From contig JACPDR010000027.1 of NCBI GenBank assembly GCA_016183935.1, forward strand, positions 1-64,000: 64,000 nucleotides of DNA. Reading direction: 5' to 3'. Both the position numbers and the translations under genes were made by a program. This DNA is from Caulobacterales bacterium. Its GTDB lineage: Bacteria > Pseudomonadota > Alphaproteobacteria > Caulobacterales > Caulobacteraceae. This document shows, one piece after another, positions 28,685-37,054 of the stretch; the stretch's first letter is position 1, and every line of letters begins with the position of its first letter. The notes under the pieces are model-generated. The model was not told where the DNA came from and did no database searches. It saw only the letters and a list, made by a program, of their open reading frames with translations.

Positions 28685-29971
28685 TCAGATGGCCGCCAGC
28701 GCCTGTTCAAGATCGGCGTACAGGTCGTCGACGTTCTCGATGCCGACCGACAGCCGGACCAGGTTGTCGCCGATGCCGCAGCGGGCCTTGGCCTCGGCGC
28801 TGTAGTCCGAATGGGTGGTGCTGGACGGGTGGGAGACGAGGCTCTCGGTGCCGCCCAGGCTGACGGCCAGCTTGAACAGACGCAGGGCGTTGAGCATGCG
28901 GAAGGCTTCCGCCTCGCCGCCCCTGAGCCGCAGAGAGAAGGTCGAGCCCGCGCCCGAGCACTGGCGTGCGAAGATGGCCTGCTGGGCCGGAGAGCTCTCG
29001 GCTCCGCCGGCGTCCAGCACAGCCTCGATCCTGGCGTGGCCGCGCAGGCGGCTGACCAGGTCCATGGCGTTCCGCTGCGACCGTTCCATGCGAATGTGCA
29101 GGGTCTCGAGGCTGCGCATCAACAGCCAGGCGGTGTGCGGGTCGGTGACCGTGCCGCAGATCGTGCGCATCTCGGCGACCCGTCCCATCAGGTCGGCGCG
29201 GCCCATGCAGGCGCCGGCGATCAGGTCGGAATGGCCGCCGACGTATTTGGTCAGCGAATACAGGATCAGATCGGCCCCGTGCTGGAGCGGCTTCTGCCAC
29301 AGCGGGCCGAGGAAGGTGTTGTCGACCACCAGCGGCGGCGCTTCCGCCTGGCCCAGGGCGCGGATCGCGGCGGCGGCGGCCTGGAGATCGATCAGCTGGT
29401 TGGTCGGATTGGCCGGGGTCTCGACGTAGACCGCCGCCAGGCGGCCGCCCCGGGACGCCGCGGCCGCCGCGGCCTCGCCGATGGCGCGGGTCAGGGCCTC
29501 GCCGCCGTCGCAGTCGGCGACGCTGACGGTCTCGACCCCCATGCGGGGCAGGATGCGGTCGAACAGGTATTCGGTGCCGCCGTAGGCGGGGGCCGTGTAG
29601 ACCACGACGTCATTCGGACGGCTGAGCGCCAGAATGGTGGTCGAGATCGCCGCCATGCCACTGGAGAAGACCAGCGCCTTGTCGGCGTCGTCCCAGACGG
29701 CGAGCCGGTCCTCGAGGATCTCGAGATTGGGATTGTTGATCCGCGAGTAGATCAGGCCCAGCGCCTCGTCCGGGTCCTTTTCGCGCAGCCCGTAGGCCAC
29801 CTCGAAGAAACGCTTGCCGTCCTCGGCCGACCTGAACACGAAGGTCGAGGTCTGGAAGATCGGCGCCTTGATCGACCCCTCCGACAGGGCGGGGTCGTAG
29901 CCATAGCCCATCATCAGGGTCTCGGGGGACAGCGGACGATCGCCCAAGGTGCGGCTGCGGTGGCGATTCAT
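28685..29971 (-). CDS. Cystathionine gamma-synthase / methionine gamma-lyase family PLP enzyme
   Basis: 428 residues. Cys/Met-metabolism PLP family. The PLP lysine is in [65 protein letters not shown] and [15 protein letters not shown] are also present, with [18 protein letters not shown] at the C-terminus. Whether it makes cystathionine, degrades methionine or uses O-acetylhomoserine cannot be read from sequence. It is longer than E. coli MetB (about 386) by an N-terminal extension. It is transcribed away from the complex I gene. Confidence 0.88.
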
Positions 29972-31881: not shown

Positions 31882-32346
31882 ATGGCCCGCAAGCTGAAGG
31901 TGTTCTGTTATTCGGACGGATTCCACTCGTGGACGGTGGCGGCGCCGTCGCGGGCCAGGGCGCTGGAGGCGTGGGGCGTCAAACGCGACCTGTTCAAGGA
32001 CGGCTCGGCCAAGGAGATCGACATCGGTCCCGACCGGGAAGCGGCCCTGGCCGCTCCGGGAGAACTGATCGAGCGCGGACTGTCGGTGGATATCGGCAAG
32101 GTCGAGCGGACGGCCGCGCCGAAGGCGAAGGCGAAGCGCGAATCGGACGCGAAGGCGCTGGCGGAGGTGGAGGCGCTTGAGGCGGACCTGGCGGCGCTCG
32201 ACGAGGCCCAGGCGGAGGAGACGGCGGCCATGGAGGCGGAGCGCGTCGCGCTGGACCGGCGGGCGGCGGCGCTGACCGGGCGGCAGACGAAGGCGCGGAA
32301 CGACCTGAAGGCGAAGCTGAAGGCGGCGCGGGCGAAGCTCAGCTAG
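31882..32346 (+). CDS. Coiled-coil protein of unknown function
   Basis: 154 residues. The N-terminal 65 residues form a compact domain, KLKVFCYSDGFHSWTVAAPSRARALEAWGVKRDLFKDGSAKEI, which looks like a small globular alpha/beta unit. Residues about 75-154 are a highly charged helix rich in Ala, Glu, Lys and Asp, a probable coiled coil that ends basic (KAKLKAARAKLS). No family is assigned. The order after xth suggests co-transcription. Confidence 0.7.
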   Translation: MARKLKVFCYSDGFHSWTVAAPSRARALEAWGVKRDLFKDGSAKEIDIGPDREAALAAPGELIERGLSVDIGKVERTAAPKAKAKRESDAKALAEVEALEADLAALDEAQAEETAAMEAERVALDRRAAALTGRQTKARNDLKAKLKAARAKLS

Positions 32347-33508
32347 CCGCGCGCCAGGCGGCGAGGCCACGCTCCAGGTCGACGATCAGGTCGGCGGGGT
32401 CCTCGAGGCCGACGTGGAGGCGGAGCAGTTCGCCGGCGAGGGTCGGCGGCGAGCGGCGGAAGGCGAGTTGGCCGGTTTCGTGGGTGATCAGGCTCTCGAA
32501 CCCGCCCCAGGAGTAGCCGAGGCCGAACAGCTCCAGCCCCGACATCAGGGCGTGGGCGGCGGTGTCCGAGCCGCCGCGCATGACCACGCCGAAGATGGAG
32601 GCGGCGCCCGCATAGTCGCGGCGCCAGAGGTCGTGGCCGGGCGCGCCCGGCAGGGCGGGGTAGAGGACTTCGGCCACTTCCGGACGGGTTTGCAGCCATT
32701 CGGCGACGGAGAGGGCGGAGCGGGCCTGTTCGGCGTAGCGCAGCGGCAGGGTGCGCAGGCCCCGCAGCGCCAGCCAGGCGTCGTCGGGCGAGACGCGCCA
32801 GCCGAGATCCTCGATGGTTTCGCCGATCTGGCGGGCGACGGCGGGGTCGGCGACGGCGATGGAGCCCATCAGCAGGTCGGAATGGCCGCCGACGTATTTG
32901 GTCACCGCCTGGACGCTGACGTCGACGCCGTGGGTCAGCGGACGGAAGGCGAGGCCGGCGGCCCAGGTGTTGTCCATCACCGTGAGCACGCCGCGGGCCC
33001 GGCAGGCGGCGGCGAGGGCGCGGACGTCGAGCAGTTCGAAGGTCAGGGACGCGGGCGATTCGATCATTAGCAGCCGGGTCCGGTCGGTCAGGGCCGCGAG
33101 GATCTCGTCCACACCGGCGTCCGGGGCATGGAAGGCGCTGTCGATTCCGCGGGCCTTGAGGTGACGATTGAGGAAGCGGCGGCTGGGGCCGTAAAGCGCG
33201 TCGGTGGCCAGCACCGAATCGCCGGGGCGAAGCAGAGCGGTCAGGGGCACGGTGACGGCGGCGAGGCCGGACGGCACAAGCCAGACGTCGGCGGCGCCCT
33301 CGAGATCGGCCAGGGCGGCGCGAAGCTCGCGGGCGGCGGACAGGTCCTCGATGCCGTAGACCGGGCCGGCGCTTTCGTCGCGCATGGCTCCGGGCGCGTC
33401 GTTGAGCAGGGTCGAGGCGCGCTCGACCGGCGGACTGACCGGGCGGCGGCCCAGGCCGCGGCGGGTGGCCGAAGCGATCAGGCGGGTTCGGTCGGAGCGG
33501 TCAGCCAT
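32339..33508 (-). CDS. metC: Cystathionine beta-lyase-like PLP enzyme
   Basis: 389 residues, the usual length of MetC. It would cleave cystathionine to homocysteine, pyruvate and ammonia. The PLP lysine lies in [20 protein letters not shown]. Other signals are PVYGIEDLSAARELRAALADLEGA, LVPSGLAAVTVPLTALL, LMIESPASLTFELLDVRAL, VMDNTWAAGLAFRP and the late GYSWGGFESLI. The WGG rather than GG in that last motif favours MetC-type over gamma-synthases. Its end overlaps the coiled-coil gene by 8 bases. It is divergent from the binding-protein gene. Confidence 0.88.
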   Translation of the reverse strand: MADRSDRTRLIASATRRGLGRRPVSPPVERASTLLNDAPGAMRDESAGPVYGIEDLSAARELRAALADLEGAADVWLVPSGLAAVTVPLTALLRPGDSVLATDALYGPSRRFLNRHLKARGIDSAFHAPDAGVDEILAALTDRTRLLMIESPASLTFELLDVRALAAACRARGVLTVMDNTWAAGLAFRPLTHGVDVSVQAVTKYVGGHSDLLMGSIAVADPAVARQIGETIEDLGWRVSPDDAWLALRGLRTLPLRYAEQARSALSVAEWLQTRPEVAEVLYPALPGAPGHDLWRRDYAGAASIFGVVMRGGSDTAAHALMSGLELFGLGYSWGGFESLITHETGQLAFRRSPPTLAGELLRLHVGLEDPADLIVDLERGLAAWRAAS

Positions 33509-33599: not shown

Positions 33600-34709
33600 A
33601 TGCGGACAGAGGTGGTTCGGCAAGCGAGTGTGGCGGGCGTGGCGTTGGTCCTCGGGCTGGCCGTCGCGGCCTGTGGCGGCGACGACCGGAAGAACGAGAC
33701 CGACACGGTCGCGCCTGTCGTGACCGCGACCGAAGCGCCCGAATTCGCCAGCCCCACCTTGCAGGCGATCAAACGCCGGGGCCGGCTGAATTGCGGCGTG
33801 CACGAAGGGCTGGTCGGCTTCGCCTATACCGACAACCGGGGCGAATGGCGCGGCTTCGACGCCGACTTCTGCCGGGCCCTGGCCGCCGCCGTGCTGGGCA
33901 GTCCGAACGCCGTGCGCTTCGTGCCCCTGACCTCGAGCCAGCGTTTTGACGCGTTGCGCAGCGGCCGTATCGACGTGCTGTGGCGCGCCACCTCGTGGAC
34001 GATGTCGCGCGAGATATCCGAAGGGGTCCGGTTCGCCGGGATCAACTACTATGACGGACAGGGCTTCCTGGTCCGCCGCGCGCTCGATCTGGCCAGCGCG
34101 GCCGAGCTGAACGGGGCCCGGGTGTGCGTGCAGCGGGAGACCACGTCGGAGCTGAACGCGGCCGACTTCTTCCGCGCCCGGAACATCGAATACCGGCCGG
34201 TCGTGACCGCCAACGAGGAGGCGGCGCGCAACGCCTATGCGCGGGAGGACTGTGACGCGTTCAGCGCCGACATCTCGGCGTTGGCGGCGGCGCGGACCCT
34301 GCTGCCCAACCCGGAGCAGCACGCCATCCTGCCCGACGTGATTTCCAAGGAGCCGCTCGGCCCGGCGGTGAAGCGGGGCGACGAGTCGTGGACGTCGATC
34401 GTGCGCTGGACCCTGAACGCCCTGGTGCTGGCCGAAGAGCTGGGAGTCACCGCCGGCAACGCCGAACAACTGGCCAGGGAATCGCGCGATCCGCAGATTC
34501 GCCGGCTTCTGGGCGCTGAAGGCGACCTCGGGGCGAGCATGGGCCTGTCGAAGGACTGGGCGAAGAACGCCATTGAAGCCACGGGAAATTATGGCGAAAT
34601 ATTCAACCGGAACATTGGACCCGATTCATCTCTCGACCTGGCGCGGGGGCTTAACGCACAATGGAAGGCTCGGCCGGGCGGCCTGATCTACGCCCTGCCG
34701 ATCCGATAA
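33600..34709 (+). CDS. AapJ/BztA-like amino-acid-binding lipoprotein
   Basis: 369 residues from ATG 33600. The N-terminus ends in lipobox VAAC-GG, so it is a lipoprotein anchored at the membrane. The binding-protein fold of the general L-amino-acid type follows: LQAIKRRGRLNCGVHEGLVGFAYTDNRGEWRGFDADFCRALAAAVLG, RFDALRSGRIDVLWRATSWTMSRE and VCVQRETTSELNAADFF. The AapQMP/BztBCD permease and ATPase genes that normally follow are absent. Instead a DAACS symporter gene begins 28 bases downstream on the same strand. Confidence 0.92.
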   Translation: MRTEVVRQASVAGVALVLGLAVAACGGDDRKNETDTVAPVVTATEAPEFASPTLQAIKRRGRLNCGVHEGLVGFAYTDNRGEWRGFDADFCRALAAAVLGSPNAVRFVPLTSSQRFDALRSGRIDVLWRATSWTMSREISEGVRFAGINYYDGQGFLVRRALDLASAAELNGARVCVQRETTSELNAADFFRARNIEYRPVVTANEEAARNAYAREDCDAFSADISALAAARTLLPNPEQHAILPDVISKEPLGPAVKRGDESWTSIVRWTLNALVLAEELGVTAGNAEQLARESRDPQIRRLLGAEGDLGASMGLSKDWAKNAIEATGNYGEIFNRNIGPDSSLDLARGLNAQWKARPGGLIYALPIR

Positions 34710-34737
34710 CGACATCGGCCGCGCGCCGGGGGGAAAC

Positions 34738-36060
34738 ATGGAAACCACGAAACGCGGCGGGATCGCCCTGCACTGGCTGATGCTCATCGGCTTCATCGTC
34801 GGCCTGGGCGGCGGGCTGTTCGTCAATCTGGCGGTGGGCGCCGACGCGCCGTGGGTGCTGTGGCTGACCTCGAACATCACCGGGCCGGCGGGACAGATCT
34901 TCCTGCGCCTGCTGTTCATGCTGGTGATCCCGCTGCTCTTCTCGGCGCTGGTCATCGGCGTGGCCGAGATGGGCGACCTGAAGGCGTTGGGTCGGGCCGG
35001 GTGGAAGACCCTCGCCTTCACCGTGGTCCTGTCGGGCATGGCGGTGGTGATCGGGCTGGTCATGGTCAACCTGTTCCGCCCGGGCGACGGTGTCGATGCG
35101 GACCTGGCGGCGGCGCTGCTGGCCCAGGGGCAGGCCGGTGCGGCCTCGATCGTCGGCAACGCGCCCGAGACCATCAACCTCGGCCAGTTCTTCCTCGACC
35201 TGATCCCGTCCAACGTCTTCACCGCCGCGGCGGAGAACCAGATCCTGCCGGTGATGGTCTTCGCCCTGCTGTTCGGCATCGGCCTGGTCATGGCCCGGAG
35301 CCCGGCGACGGACCGGCTGCAGGAGGTGGTCCTGGGCCTGTTCGAGATCACCATGAAGCTGATCAACCTGGTGATCAAACTGGCCCCGTTCGCCATCGCG
35401 GCGCTGATGTTCAACCTCGCGGCCCTGTTCGGCTGGGACCTGCTGGTGCGGCTGGCGGCCTACGTCGGCGTCGCCGTCGGGGCGATGCTGATTCATATGT
35501 TCGTGGTCTATCCGATCGCGGTCTGGACCCTCGGCGGCATGTCGCCGCTCAAATTCTTCCAGGCCATCCGCGAGCCGATGGTGGTCGCCTTCTCGACCGC
35601 CTCGTCGAACGCCAGCCTGCCGGTCTCGCTGCGCGCCGCCGAGTTCGAGCTCAAGCTGCCGCGCAAGATCGCCCGCTTCGTGCTGACCGTGGGGGCCACG
35701 GCCAACCAGAACGGCACCGCCCTGTTCGAAGGGGTGACGGTGCTGTTCCTCGCCCAGTTCTTCGGCATCGACCTGACCATCTGGCAGCAGGTGGTGGTGA
35801 TGCTGGTCTGCATCCTCGGCGGCATCGGCACGGCCGGCGTGCCGGCGGGATCGCTGCCGGTCGTGGCGATGATCCTGGTGATGGTCGGGGTGCCCGCCGA
35901 GGGCATAGGCCTGATCCTCGGCGTCGACCGCTTCCTCGACATGTGCCGGACCACGCTGAACGTCACCGGCGACCTCGTGGCGGCGACCGTGGTCTCGCGC
36001 GGCGAGAGCGATGAGGTGGTGCCGCCGGGGCTGCCCGAGCCGGTGGCGCCGCGGGCCTAG
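34738..36060 (+). CDS. DAACS-family acidic amino acid/dicarboxylate:cation symporter
   Basis: 440 residues with eight transmembrane helices and two hairpins. Signals: LRLLFMLVIPLLFSALV, the serine-rich HP1 STASSNASLPVS, TM7 TANQNGTALFEG and TM8 VDRFLDMCRTTLNVTGD. The last matches Asp390, Asp394, Arg397 and Asn401 of GltPh, and the Arg predicts an acidic substrate. TM7 reads NQNGT where sodium-coupled members have NMDGT, so Met311 and Asp312 equivalents are changed, and sodium coupling may differ. It probably forms an operon with the binding protein upstream. It overlaps the convergent sulfurtransferase by 4 bases. Confidence 0.92.
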   Translation: METTKRGGIALHWLMLIGFIVGLGGGLFVNLAVGADAPWVLWLTSNITGPAGQIFLRLLFMLVIPLLFSALVIGVAEMGDLKALGRAGWKTLAFTVVLSGMAVVIGLVMVNLFRPGDGVDADLAAALLAQGQAGAASIVGNAPETINLGQFFLDLIPSNVFTAAAENQILPVMVFALLFGIGLVMARSPATDRLQEVVLGLFEITMKLINLVIKLAPFAIAALMFNLAALFGWDLLVRLAAYVGVAVGAMLIHMFVVYPIAVWTLGGMSPLKFFQAIREPMVVAFSTASSNASLPVSLRAAEFELKLPRKIARFVLTVGATANQNGTALFEGVTVLFLAQFFGIDLTIWQQVVVMLVCILGGIGTAGVPAGSLPVVAMILVMVGVPAEGIGLILGVDRFLDMCRTTLNVTGDLVAATVVSRGESDEVVPPGLPEPVAPRA

Positions 36061-36896
36061 GGGCCGGCGACGACCGGCGTATCGTCGCGTCCGCCCCACT
36101 CGGCCCAGCTGCCGTCATAGACGCGGGAGGGGCGGCCGAGGGCGGCGAGGCCGAGGCTGAGAATGGCGGCGGTGACGCCGGAGCCGCAGCTGGTGACCAC
36201 GGGTCTGCCCGGGTCGACGCCGGCGTCGCGGAAGGCCGCCTCCAGCCTGTCCGCGGACTTCATCGTGCCGTCCGGGTTGAGGATACGGGGGAAGGGCAGG
36301 CTCAGGGCGCCGGGCATGTGGCCGGAACGCAGGCCGGGGCGCGGTTCGGCCGCGCGGCCCTCGAAGCGGTCGGCGGCGCGGGCGTCGACCACCTGGGCCT
36401 CGCCCGCCAGCGCGGCCCGGACGGCTTCGATATCGGCGAGGAGCTCGCGGTCCGGGCGGGCGGTGAACACCGCCGGGATCGCCGCCGCCGGCGGTCCGGA
36501 TTCGACTGATCGGCCCTCGGCCCGCCATTTCGGCAGGCCGCCGTCCAGCACCCGCACCCGTGAGGCGCCCATGGCCCGGAACATCCACCAGGCGCGGGCG
36601 GATGAGCGGATGCCGACGGTGTCGTAGACGACGATGTGATCGGCCTCGCTCAGACCCAACCCGCCCATGCGGGCCCCGAACGCCACGGGCGACGGCAGCA
36701 TGTGGGGCAGATCGCTGTTCGGGTCGGAGCTGGCCTCCAGGTCGAAGAAGACCGCGCCGGGCAGGCGGGCCGCCTCGAAATCCGGGCGGCCGTCGCGGCC
36801 GTCCAGATGCCAGCTGGCGTCGACGAGGCGGAGATTCGGTTCGTCCAGGCGCGCGGCGAGATCCGCGGTGGAGATCAGCGGCGGGAGGTCGGGCAT
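36057..36896 (-). CDS. sseA: 3-mercaptopyruvate/thiosulfate sulfurtransferase
   Basis: 279 residues starting MPDLPPLIS; 25 further open upstream residues look non-coding. Two rhodanese domains: an inactive first one with WHLDGRDGRPDFEAARLPGAVFFDLE and VVYDTVGIRSSARAWWMFRAMG, and a second with VVDARAADRFEG, RSGHMPGALSLPF and the active Cys loop TSCGSGVTAAILSLGL. The CGSGVT loop is the 3-mercaptopyruvate sulfurtransferase form, while thiosulfate enzymes usually have CRKGVT. Confidence 0.93.
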   Translation of the reverse strand: MPDLPPLISTADLAARLDEPNLRLVDASWHLDGRDGRPDFEAARLPGAVFFDLEASSDPNSDLPHMLPSPVAFGARMGGLGLSEADHIVVYDTVGIRSSARAWWMFRAMGASRVRVLDGGLPKWRAEGRSVESGPPAAAIPAVFTARPDRELLADIEAVRAALAGEAQVVDARAADRFEGRAAEPRPGLRSGHMPGALSLPFPRILNPDGTMKSADRLEAAFRDAGVDPGRPVVTSCGSGVTAAILSLGLAALGRPSRVYDGSWAEWGGRDDTPVVAGP

Positions 36897-37054
36897 GGCC
36901 CAGTCTAGCAGACCGGCGGGTGTCGTCCCAAGCGCGGTGGCCTTGCTCCCGGGCTCCGTGTAGCTTGCCAAGCTGAAGGTCCGGCGCCACCTGATCGCCT
37001 TACAGGCGCCGCAAGGGGCGCGCGCCCCTCCGCTGTCATTCCGGAAAGATCGCC

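What the first reader, a model, noticed from the sequence alone, without database searches (positions are those of the whole stretch)
33600..36060. ABC-type amino-acid binding lipoprotein paired with a DAACS symporter
An AapJ-like solute-binding protein is followed 28 bases later by a DAACS carrier, not by ABC permease and ATPase genes. DAACS carriers are not known to need a binding protein, unlike TRAP transporters. The symporter also has NQNGT for NMDGT at the sodium site, while the substrate Arg is kept. This could be a binding-protein-assisted secondary transporter, or a sensor and carrier pair.
Basis: partly seen in the sequence, partly recalled or inferred. Interest (0 to 1): 0.55.

Follow-up and report, generated by a model that had tools for sequence, protein, structure and literature searches.

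The report
Amino-acid binding lipoprotein beside a symporter
In Brevundimonas bacteria an old ABC amino-acid importer seems to have lost its pump parts and kept only its binding protein, which now sits beside an unrelated one-protein amino-acid carrier; whether the two work together is open, and relatives have each one without the other.

Summary
In detail: an AapJ-type lipoprotein (33600-34709) is followed after 28 bases by a complete DAACS carrier (34738-36060). The window's genome (genus Brevundimonas) shows no other SBP_bac_3 protein and no polar amino-acid ABC permease. Of 47 genomes of the genus examined, 46 have both genes, 44 of these side by side. At one slot (metC / ... / sseA) the family shows J-Q-M-P, J-DAACS-Q-M-P, J-DAACS and J alone, so this is most likely a remodelled aap locus. 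Tight partnership is not favoured: close DAACS relatives occur without this binding protein (23 of 23 genomes of another family of the order, 12 of 12 more distant ones); linked and stand-alone DAACS copies show no diagnostic core residue; and the binding protein persists alone in eight other genera. Against this, paired binding proteins keep both likely ligand residues in 32 of 32, orphans in 15 of 18, and the one Brevundimonas orphan has lost both. NQNGT is a subfamily signature (44 of 44 close relatives compared). Best reading: independent acidic amino-acid carrier plus retained receptor, probably on one transcript. Facultative delivery, as proposed for TAXI-GltS (2025), is not excluded and would be important.

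The parts
33600..34709 (+). AapJ-like amino-acid binding lipoprotein (SBP_bac_3), 369 aa
   Evidence: AlphaFold model pLDDT 76, best PDB match 4z9n, TM 0.81/0.94
33663..33674 (+). lipobox V-A-A-C25 (inferred lipidation site)
   Evidence: read from the translation; a Cys near the N-terminus is seen in the first block of the orthologue alignment (print-out cut further down)
33966..33968 (+). residue 123, Arg: Glu in 72 of 73 orthologues with aapQ beside them; Glu in 3 of 52 without. Candidate former permease contact (inference)
34008..34010 (+). Arg137, likely ligand carboxylate Arg (role inferred)
   Evidence: invariant in the 14-sequence alignment; lost in 3 of 18 orphans
34269..34271 (+). Asp224, likely ligand amino-group Asp (role inferred)
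   Evidence: invariant in the 14-sequence alignment; lost in 2 of 18 orphans
34710..34737 (+). 28-base gap between the two genes; no terminator-like site on the + strand found by a simple scan
34738..36060 (+). DAACS carrier (PF00375 SDF), 440 aa, NQNGT subfamily
   Evidence: AlphaFold model pLDDT 79, TM to several GltPh chains 0.82
35704..35718 (+). NQNGT (GltPh N310-M311-D312-G313-T314)
35947..35949 (+). Arg404 (GltPh R397), substrate arginine, kept
32339..33508 (-). metC-type cystathionine beta-lyase, divergent flank of the slot
   Evidence: TIGR01324 414 bits, cut-off 365.9
36057..36971 (-). rhodanese (sseA-type, name recalled), convergent flank of the slot

Best explanation
The locus is a remodelled aap operon. 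An ancestor had aapJQMP between metC and sseA; a DAACS gene of the NQNGT subfamily came to lie directly behind aapJ (both systems still coexist in genus g17), and in Brevundimonas aapQMP was lost. Today the two genes probably share a transcript (inferred from the 28-base gap). The DAACS carries acidic amino acids by its own elevator, coupled to ions in a way that cannot be read from the sequence. The lipoprotein is a periplasmic amino-acid receptor kept for a job that does not need the DAACS (binding or buffering, or reporting amino acids to a sensor not identified). Shown: locus states, stability in the genus, separate existence of both genes in relatives, purifying selection on orphan copies. 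Inferred: the order of events, co-transcription, substrates, independence of function.
For: Four states at one slot. The own genome shows no TIGR01726 permease and no other SBP_bac_3 protein. Close DAACS relatives occur without a match to this SBP: 23 of 23 genomes of family f3 (68-80% identity, with 22 Brevundimonas genomes matching in the same call) and 12 of 12 in f17/f197/f218 (56-63%, no positive control). No core residue separates DAACS with neighbour SBP (25) from those without (19): 2 near-diagnostic columns against a mean of 0.88 and a maximum of 4 in 200 random splits. The SBP stands without permease or orthologous DAACS in 42 of 52 orthologues outside the genus, with dN/dS 0.05-0.17 in five pairs, like 0.09-0.14 in five Brevundimonas pairs. 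Glu123, present where aapQMP is, is lost in paired and most orphan SBPs alike. SBP distances follow DAACS distances (rho 0.61) no better than those of the neighbour metC (0.63).
Against: Adjacency kept in 44 of 46 genomes, and one genome (G411) without either gene, is what a functional pair would show, though G411 also lacks a close metC orthologue. Both likely ligand residues are kept in 32 of 32 paired SBPs but in 15 of 18 orphans; G092, the Brevundimonas genome whose DAACS lies elsewhere, has lost both and has a long branch, as do several other orphans. Paired SBPs carry Arg at 123 in 31 of 32, which could be a new contact. No sensor partner is known. A carrier able to work alone in one family may still be helped by an SBP in another.
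Confidence: 0.52

Rival explanations
1. Facultative binding-protein-assisted DAACS: the loaded lipoprotein hands substrate to the outward-facing elevator and raises its affinity or imposes direction, as proposed for TAXI-GltS.
For: Stable co-orientation in the genus (44 of 46); ligand residues kept in 32 of 32 paired SBPs and lost in the Brevundimonas SBP whose carrier has moved away (G092); a carrier with altered ion sites, T92L, M311Q, D312N, S279N with D405 kept; precedent and elevator argument in PMC12344293 (abstract and sections 17, 18 read); plausible overlap of substrates (R404 kept; AapJ-type SBP).
Against: Same altered motif in carriers without this SBP; no diagnostic residue; no excess tree correlation; the pairing was found only in Brevundimonas and g17 of one family, and no fusion was seen in the loci read; SBP and DAACS trees conflict for the window genome.
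Confidence: 0.22
2. Passenger: the SBP is a remnant of aap still expressed but of little use, and the DAACS sits behind it because the promoter was convenient.
For: The slot is re-used: in two genomes of family f129 an NMDGT-type DAACS alone sits between metC and sseA. Three of 18 orphan SBPs have lost likely ligand residues.
Against: dN/dS 0.05-0.17 in five orphan pairs; 103 of 136 columns conserved in ABC-linked SBPs are kept at 90% or more in the Brevundimonas set, 99 at 80% or more in orphans.
Confidence: 0.12
3. The SBP feeds an ABC permease encoded elsewhere, in trans.
For: Orphan SBPs that use distant permeases are known in general (recalled).
Against: No TIGR01726 match in the own genome and none above cut-off in 37 of the 42 genomes with the orphan; loss of the conserved Glu123.
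Confidence: 0.04

Closest known systems
AapJQMP general L-amino-acid ABC importer (function recalled; AapJ-type structure 4z9n, Brucella ovis, with glutathione)
   Same: AapJ-type SBP over its full length (52% identity to 4z9n in the model search, TM 0.81/0.94), same metC-linked slot, Q, M and P still present in related genera
   Different: aapQMP not found in the window genome; Glu123 is replaced by Arg
DAACS / SLC1 carriers (GltPh, GltTk, GltP; ancestral uncoupled transporter 9bgz/9bh0)
   Same: SDF fold; HP1 serines and the R397, N401, D405 positions kept; best sequence matches 9bgz, then GltPh
   Different: NQNGT for NMDGT and T92L, M311Q, D312N, S279N: neither the full Na+ set nor the H+ signature ([T/S]92 hydrophobic, M311L, D405N) quoted from PMC12668577 (passages only)
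TAXI-GltS, proposed SBP-dependent secondary transporter (PMC12344293)
   Same: SBP lipoprotein gene next to a glutamate-type elevator symporter instead of its usual permease
   Different: There: TAXI SBP, ESS-family carrier, linkage in disparate taxa, 3-bp overlap and natural fusions. Here: ABC-family SBP, DAACS carrier, pairing found in two genera of one family, no fusion seen
TRAP and TTT transporters
   Same: SBP with a secondary carrier
   Different: Other SBP families and other membrane parts (recalled); the SBP is a standard component there, while close relatives of this carrier lack one

Membership tests
DAACS (PF00375) | SDF domain above the curated cut-off over the whole length | tested here: met
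   372.5 bits, cut-off 27.9, profile 1-386 of 387
DAACS (PF00375) | substrate residues of acidic amino-acid carriers (R397, N401, D405 positions) | tested here: met
   R404, N408, D412 aligned to GltPh and invariant in the 14-sequence alignment
DAACS, Na+-coupled type | full Na+ site residues including T/S92 and D312 | tested here: not met
   L98 and N325; NQNGT in 44 of 44 subfamily members
DAACS, H+-coupled type | signature [T/S]92 hydrophobic, M311L, D405N (PMC12668577) | tested here: not met
   only the first holds; 311 is Gln, D405 is kept
AapJ / HAAT substrate-binding protein | SBP_bac_3 domain and AapJ-type length and C-terminus | tested here: met
   the subfamily model TIGR01096 gives 165 bits, below its cut-off of 256
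AapJQMP ABC importer | linked or genomic AapQ, AapM, AapP | tested here: not met
   no TIGR01726 match in the own genome (95% complete); no permease or ATPase gene follows
SBP-dependent secondary transporter | SBP-carrier linkage in disparate taxa or as fusions | tested here: not met
   found only in Brevundimonas and g17; 9 DAACS and 1 DAACS-Q-M-P among 80 named loci; 0 of 23 and 0 of 14 genomes with the carrier elsewhere match this SBP. Other SBP families beside other DAACS carriers were not searched for
SBP-dependent secondary transporter | transport depends on or is improved by the SBP | not testable with these tools
   needs uptake assays

The most novel reading that the evidence does not exclude
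Brevundimonas has turned an ABC-type amino-acid receptor into a facultative feeder of a DAACS elevator whose ion sites are degenerate, so that the binding protein supplies affinity and perhaps direction that the ion gradient no longer gives in full: a second, independently evolved class of SBP-assisted elevator beside TAXI-GltS, caught with a living intermediate (J-DAACS-Q-M-P).
Probability: 0.2. Interest if true: 0.8.

Novelty: new variant of a known kind. Interest (0 to 1): 0.45.

Why it matters
Binding proteins are the rule for ABC importers and the exception for secondary carriers; a 2025 paper (PMC12344293) says that further classes would allow a test of whether something in the elevator mechanism lets a carrier accept one. 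This locus offers that test with natural controls: the same carrier without the binding protein, the same binding protein without the carrier, and one genus with carrier and ABC pump together.

Tried and rejected
Intact aapQMP elsewhere in the genome: searched, none found. NQNGT as a private oddity of the paired carrier: rejected, a subfamily signature. Co-evolution by distance correlation: SBP-DAACS 0.61 (23 genomes), metC-SBP 0.63 and metC-DAACS 0.55 (18 genomes, those with a metC match in the held stretch), so no excess. Independent double origin of the pairing in g17 and Brevundimonas: one clade is not rejected for the SBP (p-AU 0.056) or the DAACS (0.43), inconclusive. Glu123 against aapQMP presence on a tree: only 2 changes of aapQMP state, 1-2 independent pairs, so no statistical weight. 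Promoter and terminator scan: nothing above chance. A class-level sample of 385 genomes gave no NQNGT carrier outside the genus among its 12 matches; the nine others have NMDGT. Paper searches on the pairing or on orphan SBPs; their listings showed TAXI-GltS but no SBP-DAACS pair by title or abstract; only PMC12344293 and PMC12668577 were opened, so absence from print is not claimed beyond those listings.

Rows dropped before counts: L133, L142 and L103 of the 80 named loci were left out. L103 duplicates genome G031. L133 and L142 have several kb downstream with no Q, M or P recognised; both have Glu123, so they speak against the Glu123 rule and are counted in the 3 of 52. SBP matches under 200 bits were not counted as orthologues. 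In one search, 61 of 123 rows were used. In one search the further pairs gave 0.10 (g17), 0.34 (G009-G007, ABC-linked) and 0.01 (G060-G068 second copies).

Full report
What is there. An amino-acid binding lipoprotein of Pfam family SBP_bac_3 (33600-34709, 369 aa) is followed after 28 bases by a full-length DAACS carrier (34738-36060, 440 aa). On the left a divergent cystathionine beta-lyase gene (32339-33508), on the right a convergent rhodanese gene (36057-36971) close the slot. The SBP's best structural relative by sequence and by fold is 4z9n, a Brucella ovis periplasmic binding protein solved with glutathione. The carrier's nearest solved relatives are an ancestral uncoupled aspartate transporter (9bgz, 9bh0) and GltPh.

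The genome. The window's genome (2.93 Mb, 55 contigs, 95% complete) has four SDF genes, one SBP_bac_3 match, which is this one, and no TIGR01726 polar amino-acid permease match. Seven of the nine closest named loci are titled Brevundimonas, one of them with the contig length of genome G049 of the window's genus, so the genus handle g1 is taken to be Brevundimonas.

Conservation. In 47 genomes of the genus, 46 have both genes and one (G411) has neither. In 44 of the 46 they are direct neighbours on one strand with at most 63 bases between the matches, read from the coordinates. In G002 another DAACS, scoring best with the DctA and GltP models but below their cut-offs, lies between them. In G092 the SBP sits alone between metC and sseA and the DAACS lies alone on another contig. 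G411 also lacks a close metC orthologue (best match 42%), so it may have lost the whole stretch. The DAACS of G457 has one in-frame TAG.

History of the locus. Outside the genus, one search gave 52 SBP orthologues above 200 bits in the family. Eight are followed by TIGR01726 permeases, with the ATPase gene in the six of these loci that were read. Two (both of g17) are followed by DAACS and then Q, M and P. The other 42, in eight genera, have neither an adjacent permease above cut-off nor the orthologous DAACS; at least one of the 42 (G104) lies at a contig end and cannot be judged. Of 12 such orphan loci read at 13-16 kb, nine lie between metC and sseA, two beside sseA only, and one shows neither. 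So one slot shows J-Q-M-P, J-DAACS-Q-M-P, J-DAACS and J alone. In g17 (read in G017) the five genes are open frames in tight array. Among 80 named loci found with an SBP profile, 61 read QMP, 3 Q and 2 QM (four of these five are cut by a contig end), 9 DAACS, 1 DAACS-Q-M-P (this is G031 again), and 4 none. The simplest history is an aapJQMP ancestor, arrival of a DAACS behind J, and loss of QMP. Whether the pairing of g17 and that of Brevundimonas are one event is not settled: one clade is not rejected for either gene (p-AU 0.056 and 0.43).

Does the carrier need the binding protein? The same DAACS at 68-80% identity is present in 23 genomes of another family of the order (f3), none of which has a match to the SBP, while 22 Brevundimonas genomes in the same call do. 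In the 18 loci of that family read, no relative of the SBP, Q, M or P was found beside it; SBPs of unrelated families were not tested for. More distant members (56-63%) in three further families also lack the SBP, 12 of 12 (that search held no positive control of its own), and none of ten neighbouring proteins tested there matches a binding-protein family. Comparing 25 SBP-linked with 19 stand-alone carriers, no column of the core separates them. One tail column, filled in four rows only, does; two columns lean apart, against a mean of 0.88 and a maximum of 4 in 200 random splits. I therefore see no footprint of docking on the carrier.

Does the binding protein need the carrier? It persists without it in the 42 orthologues above, with dN/dS between 0.05 and 0.17 in five orphan pairs, like 0.09-0.14 in five Brevundimonas pairs; two of the orphan pairs are near saturation at silent sites. 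Of the 42 genomes, 37 have no TIGR01726 permease above cut-off anywhere. A result the other way: Arg137 and Asp224, by position the likely ligand contacts (role inferred), are both kept in 32 of 32 paired SBPs but in 15 of 18 orphans in the alignment. G092, the Brevundimonas genome whose carrier has moved away, has lost both, and G030 and G004 have changed one or both. Several orphans also have long branches. That is what one would expect if the carrier keeps its neighbour useful, at least in this genus, and it moved my odds for assistance from 0.20 to 0.22.

One column tells the past. Residue 123 is Glu in 72 of 73 SBPs with aapQ beside them (70 of 71 of the J-Q-M-P type, both of g17), in 0 of 32 paired with DAACS only, and in 1 of 18 orphans. 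Two further SBPs without recognised QMP, left out of that count, also have Glu, which makes 3 of 52. The tree holds only about two changes of aapQMP state, so this has no statistical weight, but it fits a permease contact dropped after the pump was lost, with or without a DAACS. In the paired SBPs it is Arg in 31 of 32, which could be ancestry or a new contact.

Do the two evolve together? DAACS and SBP trees conflict for the window genome: its SBP and metC group with G073 and G143, its DAACS with G139, G135 and G131. Distances correlate 0.61 between SBP and DAACS, 0.63 between metC and SBP and 0.55 between metC and DAACS. So the pair is no more linked than the neighbour is, and the carrier gene seems to have been exchanged within the genus.

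The ion sites. Against GltPh the carrier has T92L, M311Q, D312N and S279N, and keeps S93, T308, N310, R397, N401 and D405 (GltPh numbering). PMC12668577 (passages only) gives [T/S]92 to a hydrophobic residue, M311L and D405N as the mark of proton-coupled members and says that the NMD loop takes part in all three sodium sites. This carrier fits neither set; its coupling is open. The motif is shared by all 44 close relatives compared, and in the 12 more distant ones it is NQNGT in 11 and NQNGS in one.

How it most likely works, and what is known. I hold the two proteins to be an independent carrier and an independent receptor, probably on one transcript (0.52). Facultative delivery is the chief rival (0.22). 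It has a precedent: PMC12344293 (abstract, section on GltS and Discussion read) proposes a TAXI lipoprotein feeding the elevator GltS, on linkage in disparate taxa, translational coupling and natural fusions, with functional coupling still to be shown. The present pair lacks the wide linkage, and no fusion was seen. SBPs that report to sensor kinases are described in Pseudomonas (PMC11113362, search listing only), which is the model for a receptor role; no partner was identified here.

Verdict. Real, conserved in one genus, best explained as a remodelled aap locus; direct cooperation is unproven and, on balance, not favoured by the comparative evidence.

Noticed in passing
L175 and L183 (genomes G786, G703, family f129): A different, NMDGT-type DAACS sits alone between metC and sseA, the very slot that holds aapJ in Caulobacteraceae; no match to the SBP in either genome.
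   Followed up: partly
L063:5923-7026 and L066:6089-7435 (G092): The one Brevundimonas genome with SBP and DAACS apart has an SBP that lost both likely ligand residues and evolves fast.
   Followed up: partly
L062:6749-8041 (G002): A second DAACS gene, best matched by the DctA and GltP models (below their cut-offs), lies between the SBP and the NQNGT carrier, all three in one direction.
   Followed up: partly
L088 (G463): One Brevundimonas genome carries a further divergent aapJ (48%) with Q-like and P-like genes, besides its J-DAACS pair.
   Followed up: no
G457:C87:7458-8756: The DAACS match has one in-frame TAG; either a broken carrier or a sequence error.
   Followed up: no
window SBP residue 123 (33966-33968) and orthologues: A Glu present in nearly every AapJ with its permease is lost in most without; a candidate AapJ-AapQM contact worth testing in an ABC importer.
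   Followed up: partly
window 28685-29971 and 32339-33508: Two Cys/Met-metabolism PLP enzymes on the minus strand within 5 kb, the second flanking the SBP.
   Followed up: no
window DAACS 34738-36060 against metC and SBP: Conflicting trees suggest the carrier gene alone was exchanged between Brevundimonas lineages at a conserved slot.
   Followed up: partly
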